A stretch of DNA of 64,000 nucleotides from a virus. The stretch spans positions 54,587 to 118,586 of the IMG/VR virus record IMGVR_UViG_3300036823_000117; one strand, written 5' to 3'. The translations under genes were made by a program, and so were the position numbers. This document shows positions 10,424-58,227 of this stretch, piece after piece (position 1 is the stretch's first letter; each line of letters begins with the position of its first letter). The notes below the pieces were generated by a model, which saw nothing but the letters and a program-made list of their open reading frames with translations, had not been told where the DNA came from and searched no databases.

Positions 10424-11674
10424 GTGCCAAGTCCCCCGACTCCGGCGACGCCGGGTCAGAGCTACACGCTGTTCCTGAATTTCTTCGACATGACGTCGGG
10501 TTCGCTGGCGAATGCGACGAGCCTGCAGCTGGATATCACGTTCGGGTCGGAGGCGCCGCTGGTCCCGGATGTTTCCGGCCCGTTCACTTGGACAGGTGCG
10601 ATCGAGCCTGGCCCGGATGAGATCTGGGAGCTGGGCACCGGGCAGTACGGGTTCGACTGGCAGGTGCCGTCGAACCTCGCCGCCGGCGCGTACGTGGCGA
10701 CGTGGACGGTCGGGTACGGCGGCGACGAGTTCCTTGTCACCGAGAACTTCCCGCTCGCGGCGTCTATTACCCCGGTCGCGTCGGGGGATCTCGGGTACTG
10801 GACGGGGAGCATCACCTACCAGCCGTCTTACCTGTCGTCGCCGCTGGTGATCCCGCTCGGCGGCACGGATTCCAGTGGCGTGTCGTGGATGCTGCAGAAG
10901 GTCGAGGGATGGGATTCGCCGCCGTCGGCGGTGGGCCAGGTGATCCAGCGGTCCGGGGATCATGGCGGGTGGCCGACGGCGCAGTTTTACGGGCCGCGGC
11001 TGATCAGCCTGATCGTCATGGCGTCGGCGCCGTCGCAGGCGCTGCGGGACCAGGCCCGGGCGGTGCTGCAGCAGGCGGTGCCCGTGGGCATCACGGCGTC
11101 TGACCTGGCCACGTTCACCTATGACGAGCCCACGCCGAAGCTCGCTTACGTCCGGCGGAACGCGTCGGCGACGATCGCGGAGACGTATCCGACGCTGACC
11201 GACGTGGTCTTCACGATCCCGCTGACCTGCCCGGATCCGCGGAAGTACTCGACGACGACGCAGGAAGCGTCGACGATCACGCCGTCGACGGCGTCGCCGC
11301 TGGCCCTGCCGTTCGCATTGCCGATCACGTTCCCGGCCGAGTTGTCGGCGGGGAAACTCGGGATCCTCGCAGTTAATGCCGGGACGTTTGAGACGCGGCC
11401 GATTTGCACGGTGACCGGGCCGATCACGTCGCCGTCGGTCATCAACGCGGCCACGGGCCAGGCGGTCACTTTCACCGGCCTGACTGTCCCCGGCGGGTCG
11501 CAACTGGTCCTGGACATGGACGCCCGGCAGGCATTCCTGAATGGGGCGTTTACGCCCGCTGATGCTGCGAGCGCCTGGTGGGTTGTGCAGCCGGGAGAGT
11601 CGCCCATCTACATGACGGGCACCTCTTCCGCCGGGTCAAGTTTGGCTATGTCATGGGCAAGCGCGTGGATCTGA
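10424..11674 (+). CDS. Distal tail protein (Dit-like)
   Basis: A 416-residue protein starting at GTG 10424. Residues 1-125 look like an extra Ig-like domain. The middle contains VEGWDSPPSAVGQVIQR followed by SGDHGG, the signature-like turn of Dit proteins. The C-terminal half is a galectin-like beta region. Dit forms the hexameric hub at the tail tip below the tape measure. Gene order supports this. Confidence 0.75.
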   Translation: MPSPPTPATPGQSYTLFLNFFDMTSGSLANATSLQLDITFGSEAPLVPDVSGPFTWTGAIEPGPDEIWELGTGQYGFDWQVPSNLAAGAYVATWTVGYGGDEFLVTENFPLAASITPVASGDLGYWTGSITYQPSYLSSPLVIPLGGTDSSGVSWMLQKVEGWDSPPSAVGQVIQRSGDHGGWPTAQFYGPRLISLIVMASAPSQALRDQARAVLQQAVPVGITASDLATFTYDEPTPKLAYVRRNASATIAETYPTLTDVVFTIPLTCPDPRKYSTTTQEASTITPSTASPLALPFALPITFPAELSAGKLGILAVNAGTFETRPICTVTGPITSPSVINAATGQAVTFTGLTVPGGSQLVLDMDARQAFLNGAFTPADAASAWWVVQPGESPIYMTGTSSAGSSLAMSWASAWI

Positions 11675-11690
11675 GGCATTAGGAGTGTGA

Positions 11691-12764
11691 ATGGCTTCTA
11701 GTGTCGGACTCGGCACGCCATTGTTTGTGGACGATGCACCCAACACGGCGGCAACTCCTTTCAGGAGTTACGAAATTGGGACGCGCGTGAACAATGTCGG
11801 CACCGCGTCGGCTAACCAGGTCGCAGGCGGCGTGTTCCCCGGCGTCGGCGCCATGGCCGTCACCCCCGGTTCCGGGCTGGCCGTCCAGGTCGCTGCGGGG
11901 TACTGCTGCGTCCCCGCCGCGTCGGCGCTGCAGGGCGGCTACGTCTTCGGCGCCATGACGAGCCAGTCGCTCACCCTCGCCGCGGCTGACCCTACGAACC
12001 CGCGGATCGACCTGGTCACCGCGCAGGTCACCGACACCGGCACGTCAGCATCGTCGTGCAGCCTGAGCATCGTCACCGGGACTGCGGCGTTCTCCCCGTC
12101 GCCGCCGTCGCTGTCGTCGCTCACCGCGATCGTGCTGGCCGCAGTGCAGGTCGGCGCGGGGGTCGCTTCGCTGACCAGCGCGAACATCACCGACGAGCGG
12201 GCGTATGTCACGGCGCCGGGCGGGATCCTGCCGATCTCCTCGGCGGCGGCCGCGCCGGCCGCGCCGGCGTGGCAGCTGTTCTACAACGTGTCAGCCGGGG
12301 CGCTGGTCACCGGGTCGGGGACCGCCGGGGTTGTCTCGCCGCTGCCGGTGCTGCCCTGGGCGCCCGTGATCAGCCAGGTCGCCACCACGATGTCGGACTC
12401 GTCGTCGCCGGGGACGCTGACCACGATCACGACATGCTCGATCACCACGGGCGGCGAGGACATCGAGGTCTTCTACAAGTGGCCCGGCTGGAAGGTCAGC
12501 TCGGCGCCGCTCCTGGTCACGGTGCAGGTGTCGCTTGACGGCACGGTGATGGACCAGACGGTGCTGTTCCCGGCGTCGTCGAGCCTGGCGTCGTGCGGCG
12601 GGTCGGCCCGCTGGTACTCCTCGGCCGCTGAGTCGACGACGCCGTCGGCGGGGTCGCACACGGTGGCGTTCGCGTTCCAGTCGGCCAGCGGGTCGGCGAC
12701 CACCACTCTTGCCGCGTCGGGGACTGCGCTGGCTGTCCTGCGCGCCGCGCCGGCCAGCGCCTAG
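11691..12764 (+). CDS. Minor tail protein, first of a tandem pair
   Basis: A 357-residue protein. It shares with the next gene a conserved block (VTPGSGLAVQVAAGYCCVP in this copy), the pattern NITDERAYV and an Ala-rich AAAAPAAPA linker, so the two arose by tandem duplication. Residues 1-180 resemble a baseplate upper protein/fibre base domain; residues 230-350 form a beta-sandwich with EDIEVFYKWPG. A receptor-contacting tail-tip role is likely but inferred. Confidence 0.65.
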   Translation: MASSVGLGTPLFVDDAPNTAATPFRSYEIGTRVNNVGTASANQVAGGVFPGVGAMAVTPGSGLAVQVAAGYCCVPAASALQGGYVFGAMTSQSLTLAAADPTNPRIDLVTAQVTDTGTSASSCSLSIVTGTAAFSPSPPSLSSLTAIVLAAVQVGAGVASLTSANITDERAYVTAPGGILPISSAAAAPAAPAWQLFYNVSAGALVTGSGTAGVVSPLPVLPWAPVISQVATTMSDSSSPGTLTTITTCSITTGGEDIEVFYKWPGWKVSSAPLLVTVQVSLDGTVMDQTVLFPASSSLASCGGSARWYSSAAESTTPSAGSHTVAFAFQSASGSATTTLAASGTALAVLRAAPASA

Positions 12765-26580: not shown

Positions 26581-28248
26581 TCAGCCCGTGGCGGGAAGAT
26601 CCCAAGGCCAGGTGGCGTCGCGGCCGGCCTCTGTGACGGGGATGATCCGGAAGGCGGCATCGGTCAGGCCGCCCAGCGTGACCCGCGTCCCGGACCCTGA
26701 CGGGGTAGCCCCGGCCGAGTAGCCGCCGAAGTTCCACATGTACAGCGGGACACTCGCCGGGACCAGGTCGTCGATCAGCGTTTCCTGCATGCCGCCGTTG
26801 CGCCACATGTTGGACGGCAGGTAGCCGGCCCGGGTCTGCTCGTCGGTGACGATCACGACACGAGTGTGCTCGGGCCGCAGGTGCGTCTTGACCGCGAGCG
26901 GGATGTCTGTGCCGCCGGGCGCCGGCTGGTAGCTGAACCGCTCGACGATCTTCAGCACGGACTCCGCGGCCGTGAACTTCACCGGCCGGGATTTCCCCCA
27001 GAATTCCACCAGGTCGGAGTGCTCGGCCCGCCGCGCGATGGCCGCGCCGAAGATGGCCGCGCCGTCCGCCCAGGGCATGTCGGAATGCTCGGAGAACTTC
27101 TGATCCCACATCGACGGCGACCGGTCCACCAGCACCAGGGTCCGGCCGCGGAGCGCGGGCACGTTGGCCAGGGACAGGTTCAGCGCCTTCTCCAGCGGAT
27201 GCCCCCACCGCAGCGACGGCGCAGCGCGGTAAGCCGACAGGAACCGGAACGGGAACTGGCGTGACCGCGCGACGTGGTCCGGGTCCGCGAGCATGGCCGC
27301 GACCTGCTCGACCACGTCATCGGGAACGCCGGCGTCGTCCAGGTTCCGCAGGTTGCGAAGGCGTGCCATGTAGCTCATCGATGGCAGGATCGCCGTCCAC
27401 GCCGCCGCGTCCATCGGCCCCTGCAGCCAGCCCGACATCGACTCCCATGTCATCCCGGCCTCGTGCAGCTGCTCGCTGGCGGCGGGCTCGCTGATCAAAA
27501 TCCGCCGGGCGGCAACAGGCAGCGCCATCAGCGCGGCCTGCCAGCGCAGCGTCTCCAGCACCTCCGGGATCTCGTTGTCCCGCCCGTGGCGCCGCTCGAT
27601 CGCGTGCCGGTACAGGGCGTCTCGCCACGTCCCGTAGGCGTTGCCGTGGTACCGGGGCTGAACGAGCTCGATCACGTCACCGAACCGGACCGCCGCCTCG
27701 GCCGTGTCCCACTTCAGCAGGGCCCGCTCGTTGTACAGACGGTTCACCGCGTCAGCGACACCGCGCTTGAAGCCGATCGGCATCTTCCGGCCGTACCGCG
27801 CCAGCCAGTACGCGATGATCTCGCCCGGCTCATCGGCGCGCTGCAGCACCGAGTCGACGACCTTGCGGACCGGCACGCCCGGGTTGCTGACCTCACGGCC
27901 CGTGCCAGCCTCATCGCGACGCGCCCACGCGTACTCCGCCGCGGCCTCGACGGGCGCGAGCCTCAGGTTCCCCGGCCCCCGCATCCACGCCAGCAGGCCC
28001 GCGGTCCAGTCCGGGTGGACAGCTGACGCCTCGCGGACCAGGCCCCGGAACCGGCTCACCCGCGCGTCGGTGCCCTCGTGGAACGCCTTCTCGCCTGGCA
28101 GGTTGCACGCGGCCAGGAGAAACAGCTCCGACTGCAGGTCGCGGGTGTAACCCTGCGCGCCCAGCGCGGTCCGGGCTACGGGCGACGCCGTGCTGACCAC
28201 GGGCGTGCGCGTCGGAGCCTTGACGGATCCCCGGTTGTTTCTGCTCAT
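26581..28248 (-). CDS. rsr: Ro60/Rsr homologue: TROVE domain plus von Willebrand A domain
   Basis: A 555-residue protein; ATG 28248 (MSRNNRGSV) is chosen because GGAGGG lies seven bases upstream, whereas the longer frame lacks a site. Residues about 20-345 match the TROVE helical ring that binds misfolded RNA and Y RNA (TRDLQSELFLLAACNLPG; RDALYRHAIERRHG). Residues about 375-545 form a vWA domain with an intact metal site: DRSPSM, GGTD and VTDEQ. Bacterial Ro60 works with Y RNA and exoribonucleases in RNA quality control. Two candidate Y RNAs lie in the tRNA array. Confidence 0.9.
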   Translation of the reverse strand: MSRNNRGSVKAPTRTPVVSTASPVARTALGAQGYTRDLQSELFLLAACNLPGEKAFHEGTDARVSRFRGLVREASAVHPDWTAGLLAWMRGPGNLRLAPVEAAAEYAWARRDEAGTGREVSNPGVPVRKVVDSVLQRADEPGEIIAYWLARYGRKMPIGFKRGVADAVNRLYNERALLKWDTAEAAVRFGDVIELVQPRYHGNAYGTWRDALYRHAIERRHGRDNEIPEVLETLRWQAALMALPVAARRILISEPAASEQLHEAGMTWESMSGWLQGPMDAAAWTAILPSMSYMARLRNLRNLDDAGVPDDVVEQVAAMLADPDHVARSRQFPFRFLSAYRAAPSLRWGHPLEKALNLSLANVPALRGRTLVLVDRSPSMWDQKFSEHSDMPWADGAAIFGAAIARRAEHSDLVEFWGKSRPVKFTAAESVLKIVERFSYQPAPGGTDIPLAVKTHLRPEHTRVVIVTDEQTRAGYLPSNMWRNGGMQETLIDDLVPASVPLYMWNFGGYSAGATPSGSGTRVTLGGLTDAAFRIIPVTEAGRDATWPWDLPATG

Positions 28249-28346
28249 CTCGACCCTCCAGATGGAGGGGAGGGAAGACTTCAGCGTGACCGCGCCCGAC
28301 AACGAGTCGGACTAGGCGACATGCGCCTTAAGCGCACCTATAGCCA

Positions 28347-28374
28347 AGGAAGTAGCCCAATCCTGCACTTCGGG
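28347..28374. repeat. Direct repeat copy A upstream of the Ro60 gene
   Basis: AGGAAGTAGCC, four variable bases, then CCTGCACTTCGGG. The unit can fold as GAAGT-GC/GC-ACTTC with one bulged A. A second copy starts 93 bases further right. Confidence 0.6.
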
Positions 28375-28439
28375 CCCGACCATGCATGAAGTTTGATCCC
28401 CCCCGATAACGGAATGGCGGCGGCGAATTTCTTCTTGAC

Positions 28440-28467
28440 AGGAAGTAGCCGTCACCTGCACTTCGGG
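28440..28467. repeat. Direct repeat copy B upstream of the Ro60 gene
   Basis: Same two conserved blocks as copy A with a different four-base spacer. Both lie between the Ro60 gene and the macro-like gene, so they may be operators or structured leader elements. Confidence 0.6.
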
Positions 28468-28527
28468 AGAGGTGCTGACCGGAACGCTACACGACGTGAC
28501 GGGACCGGTCCACTGCATTACCGCCTG

Positions 28528-33881: not shown

Positions 33882-33913
33882 TGGGTCTCGTCCTCGGCCG
33901 GCTAGGGCCATCG

Positions 33914-33988
<75 letters not shown>

Positions 33989-34038
33989 ATCAGAAGACTA
34001 CCGCACGTGACTGTCAGCCGGCTAGCTTCCTGGCCGGC

Positions 34039-38792: not shown

Positions 38793-38894
38793 CTACGTTG
38801 ACGCCTTGGTCCCGAACGTGTCCAGCAGCATGGCTCGCGAGCAGCTGGTGGCGGTGTGCCGCTGCTGCTCGTACCTGGGCTGGTTGCTGGTCAT
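38793..38894 (-). CDS. 33-residue protein ending the metallophosphoesterase operon
   Basis: A short frame (MTSNQPRYEQQRHTATSC start) whose ATG overlaps the stop of the metallophosphoesterase gene by four bases (ATGA) and which is followed by a terminator. The coupling and terminator favour a real gene. No function recognised. Confidence 0.5.
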   Translation of the reverse strand: MTSNQPRYEQQRHTATSCSRAMLLDTFGTKAST

Positions 38895-39553
38895 GGATCC
38901 AACTGTACGCGAGGGGTCGGGCAGTCGGCAACTGCATTTTGGGTTGCGTCGAGGTCGGTGATGATTTTGCTGATTGTCTCGGCGGCGACGGGGCGGAGGT
39001 TCCAGGCGTCAAGACCGACGTGGACCATTTTTCCGCGCCATTGTGGTTCTCCGCGGAACGGGGTGAATGGCAGTGCGTCGACCTGGGCGCGCTCGGCTCC
39101 GTGGGTGTGGCCGTGGAGCAGCCATTTGCCTTCGTCGCGGAGCCGGTACTGGGTGTGGCGGTCTTCGTCGGAGTGGTCGCCGTAGTAGGGAAAGTGGGAC
39201 AAGAGGACTTCGGTGCCGTCGATTTTCCGGCGGGCGTACTGCTGGATAGACGCGAAGTACTGGAGCCACAGCCGCTGGGTTCTGTGCGCGTCCCTGTGGG
39301 CTGGCCAGGGGGCGTCGTGGTTGCCGGTGATGAGGTGGATGGTGCCGTTGAGCCGGGCGACCCAGGGGAGGATCTCGGCTGGTTTCCCGAGGCCTACGTC
39401 GCCGAGGTGCCAGACGGTGTCATCGCGGCCGACCGCGGCGTTCCAGTTGGCGACGATCGCCTCGTCATGGTCAGGGGCGGTGTCGAACCCGCGGAGCCTG
39501 CCGACCATGGCGTGGGTGAAATGGGTGTCGGAGGTGAAGAACTGGCCGCCCAT
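38891..39553 (-). CDS. Calcineurin-like metallophosphoesterase
   Basis: A 220-residue protein with the full set of metal-binding motifs in order: SDTHFTH, WHLGDVG, TGNHD, LSHFPY and HGHTH. Such enzymes hydrolyse phosphoesters of nucleotides, nucleic acids or proteins. ATG 39553 shares its A with the stop of the AAA ATPase gene, so expression is coupled. Phage members have been linked to nucleic-acid or cyclic-nucleotide hydrolysis; the substrate here is unknown. Confidence 0.85.
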   Translation of the reverse strand: MGGQFFTSDTHFTHAMVGRLRGFDTAPDHDEAIVANWNAAVGRDDTVWHLGDVGLGKPAEILPWVARLNGTIHLITGNHDAPWPAHRDAHRTQRLWLQYFASIQQYARRKIDGTEVLLSHFPYYGDHSDEDRHTQYRLRDEGKWLLHGHTHGAERAQVDALPFTPFRGEPQWRGKMVHVGLDAWNLRPVAAETISKIITDLDATQNAVADCPTPRVQLDP

Positions 39554-40818
39554 CACGCCGCCTTGAATCCGGGGATGTGGCGGGTGGCGAGGTCGTGGAT
39601 GGCGTCGGCGTGGTGGTCGTGGCGTTTGCAGGCTTCGACGATCTCGGCGGGCGCGATCCCGGAAATGCCGCGGATCTTCAGGTCGTCGTGTCCGTAGTAG
39701 CGGGATATGAGGCGGGAGGCTTGTTCTTCGGTGGCGGGGCCGAAGTGCTCGCGGAGGTCGATGCGGCCGTCTCGGGCGACGGCGTCGTCGAGGACGCCGG
39801 GGTTGTTGGTTGTCATGACGGTGAGGAGGCCGTGGGGTGTGGCGATGCCGTCGAGGGCGTTGAGGAGGCCGGAGAGGGTGAGGCCGCCGTGGTTGTCGTC
39901 GCGGCTGGTTGCGGCTGAGAAGACGTCTACGTCTTCGAGGAGGAGCATGGAGCGGGGGCCGATGCGGGAGATGTGGCGGAGGAGGTCGCCGTCTTTTTTC
40001 ACGTCGGCGAGGGGCATGTACCAGACGTCGAGGCCGAAGTGGGACGCGATGGCGCGGGCCACTGAAGTTTTGCCGGTGCCCGGGTCGCCTTCGTAGAGGT
40101 GGCCGCGGTGCCACGGGATGCACCTGCGGAGGTAGTCCTGTTCGGCGTCGAGCCACCGCTGGACGTCGGTGACGAGGCGGTGCAGCTGCCCGTCGGGGAG
40201 GATGACGGAGTCGAGGGTGCGCGGGGGGAGGTCGTCGCAGCGCTGCCAGTCGTCCCACTGGCCGAGCATCCGGAATGCGGGCTTGGTGCGTTCCCGGTGG
40301 GTGCGCTCGAGGACGCCGGCGATCTGGGTGAGGAGGGCGCGGCGGGCGGTGACGGACCGGGCGGTGAAGATGATCTCCGGTGGCTTCCACCTTTGGCCGG
40401 CGGTCTCGTCGCCGCCTTCGGATACGACGACCTTGATTTTGTGGCCGGCGACTCGGATGTCCTGCTCGCGGGTGCCGTCGTAGCGGAGGCGCAGCTCGGG
40501 GGGCTTGGCGGGTTCGTCGTCTTCGGGCATGGCGAAGTGGCGGCGGGTGGACCAGGCGACAAGGGCGTGCTGTTCCCTGGGTGGGAGGAGGCTGAGGACC
40601 CAGGTGTGGAGCTCGTCGTAGATGGCGTCGTTGCCGGAGACCTTGACGGTGTAGGTGGTCCGGCTGCGGGCCTGGCGGCGGAGGTGGTCGGCGAGGGGCC
40701 ATGCGGCCTGGCCGGCGGCGAAGGCGAGCGCGGTCCGGGGGGCGTGTTCCTGGAGGGCGGCGATCAGGTCCGACGCGGACCGGGCCCGGATCGGGCTGGC
40801 CGGGACTTCGTGGGTCAA
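39553..40818 (-). CDS. BCS1-like AAA ATPase
   Basis: A 421-residue protein. Residues 55-175 resemble the BCS1 N-terminal domain (TVKVSGNDAIYDELHTWVL and AWSTRRHF). The AAA domain has Walker A GDPGTGKTS, Walker B MLLLEDVDV, a sensor asparagine in TVMTTNNP and an arginine-finger region DGRIDLREHF. No N-terminal membrane anchor is present, unlike mitochondrial BCS1. Bacterial relatives often occur in conflict systems. It overlaps the SLOG gene by four bases. Confidence 0.8.
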   Translation of the reverse strand: MTHEVPASPIRARSASDLIAALQEHAPRTALAFAAGQAAWPLADHLRRQARSRTTYTVKVSGNDAIYDELHTWVLSLLPPREQHALVAWSTRRHFAMPEDDEPAKPPELRLRYDGTREQDIRVAGHKIKVVVSEGGDETAGQRWKPPEIIFTARSVTARRALLTQIAGVLERTHRERTKPAFRMLGQWDDWQRCDDLPPRTLDSVILPDGQLHRLVTDVQRWLDAEQDYLRRCIPWHRGHLYEGDPGTGKTSVARAIASHFGLDVWYMPLADVKKDGDLLRHISRIGPRSMLLLEDVDVFSAATSRDDNHGGLTLSGLLNALDGIATPHGLLTVMTTNNPGVLDDAVARDGRIDLREHFGPATEEQASRLISRYYGHDDLKIRGISGIAPAEIVEACKRHDHHADAIHDLATRHIPGFKAA

Positions 40819-57397: not shown

Positions 57398-58227
57398 GAC
57401 GCCGCCTCCGCGCTGAACAACTCGAGTGGCGCTGCAGGGAACGGCCGGTTCGACCACAACACCTCGGTCCGGTTCCCCCACGTCTCCGCGTTCTGCCCCG
57501 TGCCGGCCGTGAACTCGGTCCGGTTCCATCCTGCGTAGAGCTCGTCGTACAGCGGCGACGGGTAGCCCGACAGCACCACCGAGGCCCTGGCCTTGCGAAG
57601 TGCCCCGGCCAGGTCGCGGTGATCAGCGTCGGTCATCTTGTGGCGGTAAGCGTCACTCGAACGGGTTGACCGGACGTAAGGCGGGTCGACGTACAGCAGC
57701 ACGCCCTCGGCCCGGCCGTACCACTCGACCAGCTCGAGTGCCGGCCGGCATTCCAGCGAGACATGGTGCAGCCGCTCGGCCGCCGAGGCGATGCGCTCGG
57801 CGTAGGCCGTCAAGTAGTCGGGCATCCCGAACGACCCCGTCGGCTTCACGAAGTGCCGCCAGCCTGTAGTACACAACGTCCCAGCACGCCCCTGCGTGAG
57901 ACGCACCCACACCCGCCGCGCCACCTCAAGCTCGCCGCCCTGGGGGGGGGCGTCGACTGCCTCAACGTCCCGGAATTCGGCCAGGGAATGCGGGGTCAGC
58001 GCGCAAGCCCGCTCGAGATCGGCGGGGCGGTCCCGCAGGACGCGCCAGAACGTCTGCAGGGCCCGGTCAAGGTCATTGACGGTCTCCATGGCCGACACGG
58101 GCTTGGCCAGCATCACGGACAAGGAACCGCAGTACGGCTCGACATAGTGACCATGCGCAGGCAGCAGCGCAGCGATCCGGGCGCCAAGGATTTGCTTCCC
58201 GCCGAAGTACGGCACGGGCGGCTTCAC
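57394..58227 (-). CDS. dam: DNA adenine N6-methyltransferase (Dam/D12 class)
   Basis: A 277-residue protein from GTG 58227. Motif I-like PVPYFGGKQILGARI, then HYVEPYCGSLSVML, and the catalytic DPPY in LLYVDPPYVRST. D12 enzymes methylate adenine in short sites. Phage copies often protect their DNA from restriction. Specificity cannot be read from sequence. Confidence 0.85.
   Translation of the reverse strand: MKPPVPYFGGKQILGARIAALLPAHGHYVEPYCGSLSVMLAKPVSAMETVNDLDRALQTFWRVLRDRPADLERACALTPHSLAEFRDVEAVDAPPQGGELEVARRVWVRLTQGRAGTLCTTGWRHFVKPTGSFGMPDYLTAYAERIASAAERLHHVSLECRPALELVEWYGRAEGVLLYVDPPYVRSTRSSDAYRHKMTDADHRDLAGALRKARASVVLSGYPSPLYDELYAGWNRTEFTAGTGQNAETWGNRTEVLWSNRPFPAAPLELFSAEAAS

What the first reader, a model, noticed from the sequence alone, without database searches (positions are those of the whole stretch)
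26581..28248. Phage-encoded Ro60 (TROVE plus vWA) protein
The 555-residue protein has both domains and an intact metal site (DRSPSM, GGTD, VTDEQ). Ro60 homologues are rare in bacteria and known in a few phages. Here it is convergent with the lysis genes and about 8 kb from a large tRNA array that contains tRNA-like RNAs. A phage may use it to protect or sort phage tRNAs, or to redirect host exoribonucleases.
Basis: partly seen in the sequence, partly recalled or inferred. Interest (0 to 1): 0.78.

Follow-up and report, generated by a model that had tools for sequence, protein, structure and literature searches.

The report
Phage Ro60 with split Y RNAs
A bacterial virus carries the RNA-binding protein Ro60 and two small partner RNAs beside it that lack their usual tRNA-shaped part, while two free-standing copies of that part lie hidden among the virus's tRNA genes, where they may act as tRNA decoys.

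Summary
The protein call is right. Window 26581-28248 (minus strand) encodes a full-length 555-residue phage Ro60: Pfam TROVE, PHROG_850, and an AlphaFold model whose only matches at Foldseek E<=0.001 are Ro60 chains. By itself this is ordinary: phage Ro60 is an annotated family and a phage Ro60 structure is in the PDB. The new part is the RNA. Two Y RNAs lie just upstream of rsr (28396-28473, 28289-28380). Both have the Ro60-binding terminal stem but lack the tRNA-like domain that 72 of 80 bacterial and 8 of 9 named-phage Ro60 loci carry nearby. Two free-standing copies of that domain, as circularly permuted cloverleaves without a Ro60-binding stem, lie in spacers of the tRNA array (38361-38444, 36758-36832). 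The same free modules occur in two syntenic viral arrays and in Reyvirus mycobacteriophages, in which I detect no Ro60 and which carry RtcB ligase. Seven copies show compensatory changes at 13 of 23 pairs. Most likely reading: a split Ro60/Y-RNA system whose freed, anticodon-less tRNA mimics act as decoys for tRNA-handling enzymes. The architecture is shown in sequence; release and decoy function are inferred. A general link between rsr and tRNA arrays is mixed.

The parts
26581..28248 (-). rsr: phage Ro60 (TROVE + vWA), 555 aa
28289..28380 (-). YB: rsr-proximal Y RNA with Ro60-type terminal stem and a short hairpin where relatives have the tRNA-like module
   Evidence: R2 model built without window sequence, 28.6 bits, E 7e-4; no R1 module hit here
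28396..28473 (-). YA: rsr-distal Y RNA, Ro60-type terminal stem, no tRNA-like module
   Evidence: R2, 66.2 bits, E 2.6e-11
38361..38444 (-). Y1: free-standing permuted tRNA-like (YrlA-type) module filling the spacer between tRNA-Ala and tRNA-Pro
   Evidence: Rfam YrlA 37.7 bits, below gathering 69; R1 60.5 bits, E 5e-19; spacer boundaries
36758..36832 (-). Y2: second free-standing module, starting at the 3' end of tRNA-Gly(gcc); its 3' end is not defined by a neighbouring tRNA
   Evidence: Rfam YrlA 30.9 bits; R1 57.1 bits, E 6.8e-18; fold
33913..38733 (-). tRNA array, 34 tRNA genes by ARAGORN, hosting Y1 and Y2
   Evidence: 27 over Rfam's cut-off

Best explanation
This is a phage Ro60 (Rsr) RNA-protein system in which the Y RNA has been split. 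Two short Y RNAs upstream of rsr keep the stem that binds Ro60 but have no tRNA-like effector domain. The effector domain is supplied apart, as two circularly permuted, anticodon-less tRNA mimics inside the tRNA array, where tRNA maturation (RNase Z after tRNA-Ala or tRNA-Gly, RNase P before tRNA-Pro) should release at least Y1 exactly. I propose that the short Y RNAs occupy and gate Ro60, while the freed modules are abundant competitors for enzymes that recognise tRNA bodies, most plausibly host anticodon nucleases or PNPase, alongside the array of replacement tRNAs. Shown: protein family and fold, Y RNA genes, absence of modules at rsr, modules in the array, their conserved structure in other viruses. 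Inferred: expression, processing, Ro60 binding, decoy function.
For: Ro60 identity. Short Y RNAs found blind. Modules found blind with a model built only from other viruses' rsr-proximal modules: 60.5 and 57.1 bits against at most 38.5 for tandem tRNAs in this window (in other arrays tandem-tRNA hits reach about 49 bits). Across the whole 118.6-kb record a structural descriptor rings only at Y1 and Y2. Usual arrangement, module within about 0.5-1 kb of rsr: 72 of 80 bacterial loci, 8 of 9 named phages, 22 of 26 other virus records, most of which contributed to the model. Free modules in syntenic slots: G036 between tRNA-Gly(gcc) and tRNA-Leu(cag), as Y2; G031 two in tandem between tRNA-Pro and tRNA-Phe. 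Free modules after tRNA-Asn in Rey, Aziz and a third relative. Seven free modules: 98.1% of cells paired, 13 of 23 pairs changed on both sides, 0 of 500 shuffles as good. The decoy idea has a printed precedent: PMC7790460 suggests that YrlA's tRNA-like domain, not cut by the anticodon nuclease, may inhibit it competitively (passage read). PMC8394870 states that the basal stem binds Rsr and the tRNA-like domain binds PNPase (passage read).
Against: No expression or binding data. Y1 and Y2 score below Rfam's YrlA cut-off. YB is a modest hit (E 7e-4). No sigma-70-type promoter was found upstream of rsr (Streptomyces-type promoters are not covered). YA/YB show no better-than-shuffled pairing with Y1/Y2, so no reassembly in trans. 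L003 and L023 lack modules anywhere in their records, so a Ro60 can persist without them. No RtcB in this record. Descent from YrlA rather than from an independently permuted tRNA is not proven.
Confidence: 0.5

Rival explanations
1. Ordinary phage Ro60/Y RNA system for structured-RNA decay or tRNA quality control (RYPER-like, or the first reader's tRNA protection). The split is incidental: short Y RNAs suffice to regulate Ro60, and the array modules play no part in Ro60 function.
For: Short module-less Y RNAs are common as one of the two Y RNAs upstream of rsr. L003 and L023 have only module-less Y RNAs. Ro60 often sits in or near arrays in named actinophages.
Against: Does not explain the conserved free modules in several phage arrays, some without a detected Ro60.
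Confidence: 0.25
2. Y1 and Y2 are relics: Y RNA modules captured by recombination between tRNA-like sequences, kept by hitch-hiking in the array.
For: In relatives the rsr-Y locus lies inside the array, which gives a route; the lack of a module at the window's rsr is an isolated change next to L002/L014, which keep it.
Against: Compensatory changes in all three variable helices and high pairing across seven copies; same slot kept in G036.
Confidence: 0.12
3. The modules are true circularly permuted tRNA genes whose ends are ligated into an anticodon loop, so that they decode.
For: Permuted order, 5-nt variable loop, U8; Rey and Aziz carry RtcB, in Rey just after the array.
Against: In the window no RtcB is found; with a five-pair stem the next two bases of Y1 and Y2 are C and G, so the position equivalent to 33 is not U (read from the sequence); no CCA or discriminator precedes the closing loop.
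Confidence: 0.05

Closest known systems
Rsr/Ro60 with Y RNAs (Deinococcus, Salmonella rsr-yrlBA-rtcBA)
   Same: TROVE+vWA ring protein; Y RNAs encoded next to it with a Ro60-type terminal stem
   Different: Here both rsr-adjacent Y RNAs lack the tRNA-like domain; no RtcB in the record
YrlA (Rfam RF02553)
   Same: Y1/Y2 have its T-arm, closed acceptor-like hairpin and D-arm in the same permuted order
   Different: No Ro60-binding stem, below the gathering score, lie in tRNA spacers instead of beside rsr
Phage 'Ro-like RNA binding protein' family (PHROG_850) of Streptomyces, Gordonia and Arthrobacter phages; Thermus phage phiLo Ro60 (PDB 9l5y)
   Same: 36-44% identity over 99-100% of the length to the 22 closest phage records; same fold
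   Different: 8 of 9 named phages keep the tRNA-like module within about 1 kb of Ro60
Circularly permuted tRNA genes of algae and archaea (PMC3978253, passages read)
   Same: 3' half precedes 5' half
   Different: No evidence of ligation or of a decoding anticodon loop; acceptor closed by a short hairpin loop

Membership tests
Ro60/Rsr | TROVE domain by profile | tested here: met
   50.6 bits against cut-off 23; PHROG_850 E 3.5e-39
Ro60/Rsr | vWA domain with MIDAS residues | tested here: met
   Pfam vWA_Ro60 below cut-off (16.3 against 27.7), but vWA fold matched and D375, S377, S379, T447, D469 invariant in 23 rows
Ro60/Rsr | Ring of helical repeats closed by vWA | tested here: met
   AF2 pLDDT 86.4; Z 20.1-25.6 to ten Ro60 entries
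Ro60/Rsr | Y RNA gene next to the protein gene | tested here: met
   YA and YB upstream
Ro60/Rsr | Binds Y RNA on its outer surface and misfolded RNA in the pore | not testable with these tools
   needs biochemistry
YrlA RF02553 (Y1, Y2) | Score above Rfam gathering cut-off | tested here: not met
   37.7 and 30.9 bits against 69; none of 28 records, most with Y RNAs, exceeded it
YrlA RF02553 (Y1, Y2) | tRNA-like module with T-arm, closed acceptor-like hairpin, D-arm | tested here: met
   R1 60.5 and 57.1 bits; folds and pair counts
YrlA RF02553 (Y1, Y2) | Ro60-binding terminal stem | tested here: not met
   Y1 is an 84-nt inter-tRNA spacer; no R2 hit in the array on the array strand; no UACUUC hallmark upstream
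YrlA RF02553 (YA, YB) | tRNA-like module | tested here: not met
   no R1 hit near rsr; no T-arm parsed within 1.5 kb upstream of the window's rsr
RYPER (Rsr-Y RNA-PNPase) | Tethering of PNPase by the Y RNA | not testable with these tools
   needs biochemistry
Circularly permuted tRNA | Decoding anticodon loop after end joining | tested here: inconclusive
   position equivalent to 33 is not U in Y1/Y2 with a five-pair stem; joining itself untestable

The most novel reading that the evidence does not exclude
Phages use the tRNA-like half of Y RNA as an independent class of array-borne small RNA: permuted, anticodon-less tRNA mimics that are freed by tRNA processing and protect phage tRNAs by soaking up host tRNA nucleases or PNPase, with or without a phage Ro60. 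Free modules outside arrays in three more viral contigs (L188-L190) suggest a wider family.
Probability: 0.35. Interest if true: 0.82.

Novelty: new variant of a known kind. Interest (0 to 1): 0.62.

Why it matters
What the tRNA-like half of bacterial Y RNA does apart from Ro60 is, to my knowledge, open. A phage lineage in which the two halves are separate genes lets each be deleted on its own. Cultured Reyvirus mycobacteriophages that carry the free module, a tRNA array and RtcB but no detected Ro60 make the decoy idea testable in a laboratory host.

Tried and rejected
Trans-pairing of YA/YB with Y1/Y2: no better than shuffled. YrlA hits at 34563-34668 and 35100-35198, and the Vibrio hit that I opened: tandem tRNA pairs (T-arm of one, D-arm of the next), rejected. 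RF02553 at E<=1 is uninformative: it rings in 12 of 14 control genomes. Control for the descriptor, which was designed after seeing Y1 and Y2: 200 reordered arrays of 34 tRNAs gave 28 hits, 0.14 per array. RtcB in this record: none. Near relatives of window 1-24900 among named phages: none by megablast. Literature: I found no description of free-standing Y-RNA modules in phage tRNA arrays in searches (open-licence library only; search listings plus the passages named). Chen et al. 2014 and two reviews by Sim and Wolin are not held and may contain it. Rows dropped: A1 used 24 of 25 parsed modules (one misparsed); A2 used 10 short Y RNAs (near-copy L008 and the longer L013 left out); A3 used 23 of 28 Ro60 proteins (L012 and L024 dropped for a stop codon in the range, L027 after the first attempt, L008 and L026 never entered); one search left out L008; A4 left out Rey's second module (long insert) and the finds. 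A4's boundaries and the structure come from these same sequences, and Rey and Aziz stem ends from the descriptor, so pairing is partly favoured; the slid and shuffled controls remain far lower.

Full report
What was checked first. The ORF is at the stated place on the minus strand: 555 codons from an ATG at 28248. Pfam TROVE is over its cut-off; Pfam's Ro60 vWA model is not. PHROG_850 covers nearly the whole protein. A profile of 23 viral homologues finds PDB TROVE proteins at 1.8e-50, human RO60 at 6.8e-11, the 60-kDa Ro chain 1yvp at 3.6e-9 and Deinococcus Rsr at 3.4e-8. The AlphaFold model is confident. The 13 PDB chains with Foldseek E<=0.001 are all Ro60/Rsr, among them a Thermus phage Ro60. 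VIA Z falls from 20.1-25.6 for ten Ro60 entries to 10.7 for the next protein. So it is a genuine Ro60. That a phage has one is not new: 48 phage records of this branch, many already annotated 'Ro-like RNA binding protein', and 680 of a divergent branch. Papers already mention it in jumbo phages (PMC7824862), cluster C and AF mycobacteriophages (PMC12363180), cluster C1 phage McGee (PMC9583779) and BE2 Streptomyces phages (PMC13191466); passages read.

The record. The window is bases 54587-118586 of a 118,586-base virus record. It has a tape-measure-like gene, tail and virion structural genes, two integrase-type recombinases and 34 tRNA genes. Megablast of window 1-24900 finds no near named phage. 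The closest Ro60s are in two uncultured virus contigs (L002, L014, 74% identity) and then in Streptosporangium and Streptomyces genomes (58-59% and below), so an actinobacterial host is likely but not shown.

The Y RNAs beside rsr. Upstream of rsr, most viral relatives have one to four tandem Y RNAs with a terminal stem whose arms covary in sequence between loci. Commonly there is a short distal one (69-76 nt) and a longer proximal one (133-154 nt) that holds a T-arm, a closed hairpin and a D-arm, the known tRNA-like module. A model (R2) of ten short Y RNAs from other viruses, with no window sequence in it, finds exactly two places of note in the window: YA, 28396-28473, 66.2 bits, E 2.6e-11, and YB, 28289-28380, 28.6 bits, E 7e-4; the next is E 0.33. 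Neither contains the module. The window's sister proteins L002 and L014 have the module in their proximal Y RNA. L003 and L023 lack it, and the tree needs three changes for the three module-less loci.

Where the module went. A model (R1) of 24 rsr-proximal modules from other viruses, again without window sequence, finds no module at the window's rsr. It finds two in the tRNA array: Y1, 60.5 bits, E 5e-19, and Y2, 57.1 bits, E 6.8e-18. The following hits, 38.5 bits and lower, lie nearly all in the tRNA array, where the T-arm of one tRNA and the D-arm of the next imitate the module; in other arrays such false hits reach about 49 bits. Rfam YrlA had pointed at the same two places below its cut-off. 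Y1 fills the 84-nt spacer between tRNA-Ala and tRNA-Pro; Y2 begins at the end of tRNA-Gly(gcc). Each is a permuted cloverleaf closed by a GGGGAG/CUCCCC stem where the anticodon stem would be, with no strand left to form the Ro60-binding stem. A descriptor of that fold, run on both strands of all 118.6 kb, rings only at Y1 and Y2.

How unusual this is. With R1, 72 of 80 bacterial rsr loci have a module, the hits lying within about 500 nt upstream of rsr; these loci played no part in building the model. Of nine named phages examined whole, eight have a module within about 1 kb of Ro60; Rabbitrun has none at E<=1e-11. Of 26 other virus records, 22 have one at rsr scoring 45 bits or more, though most of these contributed to the model; G002, G014, G022 and G026 do not. 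Among all Ro60-bearing records examined, only the window has its modules in the tRNA array and none at rsr.

Free modules elsewhere. A sequence pattern scan of 2.9 million viral contigs gave 12 loci. Two, in records G036 and G031, have tRNA arrays in nearly the same order as the window's, with free modules: in G036 between tRNA-Gly(gcc) and tRNA-Leu(cag), the slot of Y2; in G031 two in tandem between tRNA-Pro and tRNA-Phe, next to the slot of Y1. Both records are partial and show no Ro60, which proves nothing about the phages. Mycobacteriophages Rey and Aziz (complete genomes) and a third relative, L185, have a free module right after tRNA-Asn. No TROVE protein was found in Rey and no DUF2828-type Ro-like protein either, although the TROVE search also misses Whirlwind's divergent Ro-like protein; the Ro60 protein and profile find nothing in Rey and Aziz, and the profile nothing in L185's record. 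Rey and Aziz carry RtcB, in Rey just after the array. Three more contigs (L188-L190) have a free permuted module; no tRNA was called in the loci of L188 and L189 and only one, 1.7 kb away, in L190. They were selected by a pattern that fixes the outer stem, but their T-stems and acceptor-like hairpins, which the pattern does not fix, also pair, in L189 the hairpin only over five pairs.

Is the free module a real RNA structure? Seven free copies (A4) form 98.1% standard pairs over four helices, with both-side changes at 13 of 23 pairs and 27 cells; 0 of 500 shuffles reach any of these values, and sliding the partner by one to three columns drops pairing to 35-49%. The outer stem reads GGGGAG/CUCCCC, GGGAG/CUCCC, GGAAG/CUUCC or GCGGG/CCCGC in different phages. 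Caveats are given under Tried and rejected.

Mechanism. From print: the basal stem of YrlA binds Rsr and its tRNA-like domain binds PNPase and is modified by tRNA enzymes (PMC8394870, passage read); the tRNA-like domain is not cut by the Salmonella anticodon nuclease and might inhibit it competitively (PMC7790460, passage read); tRNA arrays are considered a putative antidefence system (PMC12803027, passages read). Inference: the window's phage has separated the Ro60-binding half from the tRNA-mimic half. The mimic, made with the tRNAs and lacking an anticodon loop, would be a nuclease-proof competitor; its presence in phages without a detected Ro60 argues that it can work without one. A plausible route for the split is that in some phages (Alone3, pSt2308, BRock) the whole rsr-Y locus lies inside the tRNA array. 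Base pairing of the two halves in trans is not supported.

Weighing. Identity of the parts: high confidence for Ro60, YA, Y1 and Y2; moderate for YB. Function of the free modules: open, with the decoy reading favoured over relic, passive passenger and decoding tRNA.

Noticed in passing
window 35301-35360 (-): Inter-tRNA spacer folding far better than shuffles (z -6.2): a D-armless, tRNA-like hairpin of unknown kind.
   Followed up: partly
window 37221-37298 (-): Inter-tRNA spacer with a perfect T-arm and acceptor-like ends but no recognisable D-arm (z -3.7); not called by ARAGORN.
   Followed up: partly
window 38004-38077 (-): tRNA called Tyr with anticodon ATA; weak as a tRNA by Rfam (26.6 bits, below cut-off).
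   Followed up: no
window 39553-40818 (-): BCS1-like AAA ATPase beside the array, conserved (58%) in G036, which has the syntenic array.
   Followed up: no
window 38891-39508 (-): Metallophosphoesterase (PHROG_547) between the array and the AAA ATPase.
   Followed up: no
L188 178-270, L189 10887-10964 (-), L190 7697-7770: Free permuted tRNA-like modules in viral contigs with no nearby tRNA array or detected Ro60; in L189 a TATACT box lies just before the module.
   Followed up: partly
L060 3623-3743 (Rey 57616-57736): Second free module directly after Rey's tmRNA, with a long insert in the acceptor-like hairpin.
   Followed up: partly
L178 (Streptomyces phage Kela): RNA ligase gene directly upstream of Ro60.
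   Followed up: no
G022 11178-12281: RtcB ligase in the record of L023, whose two Y RNAs both lack the tRNA-like module.
   Followed up: no
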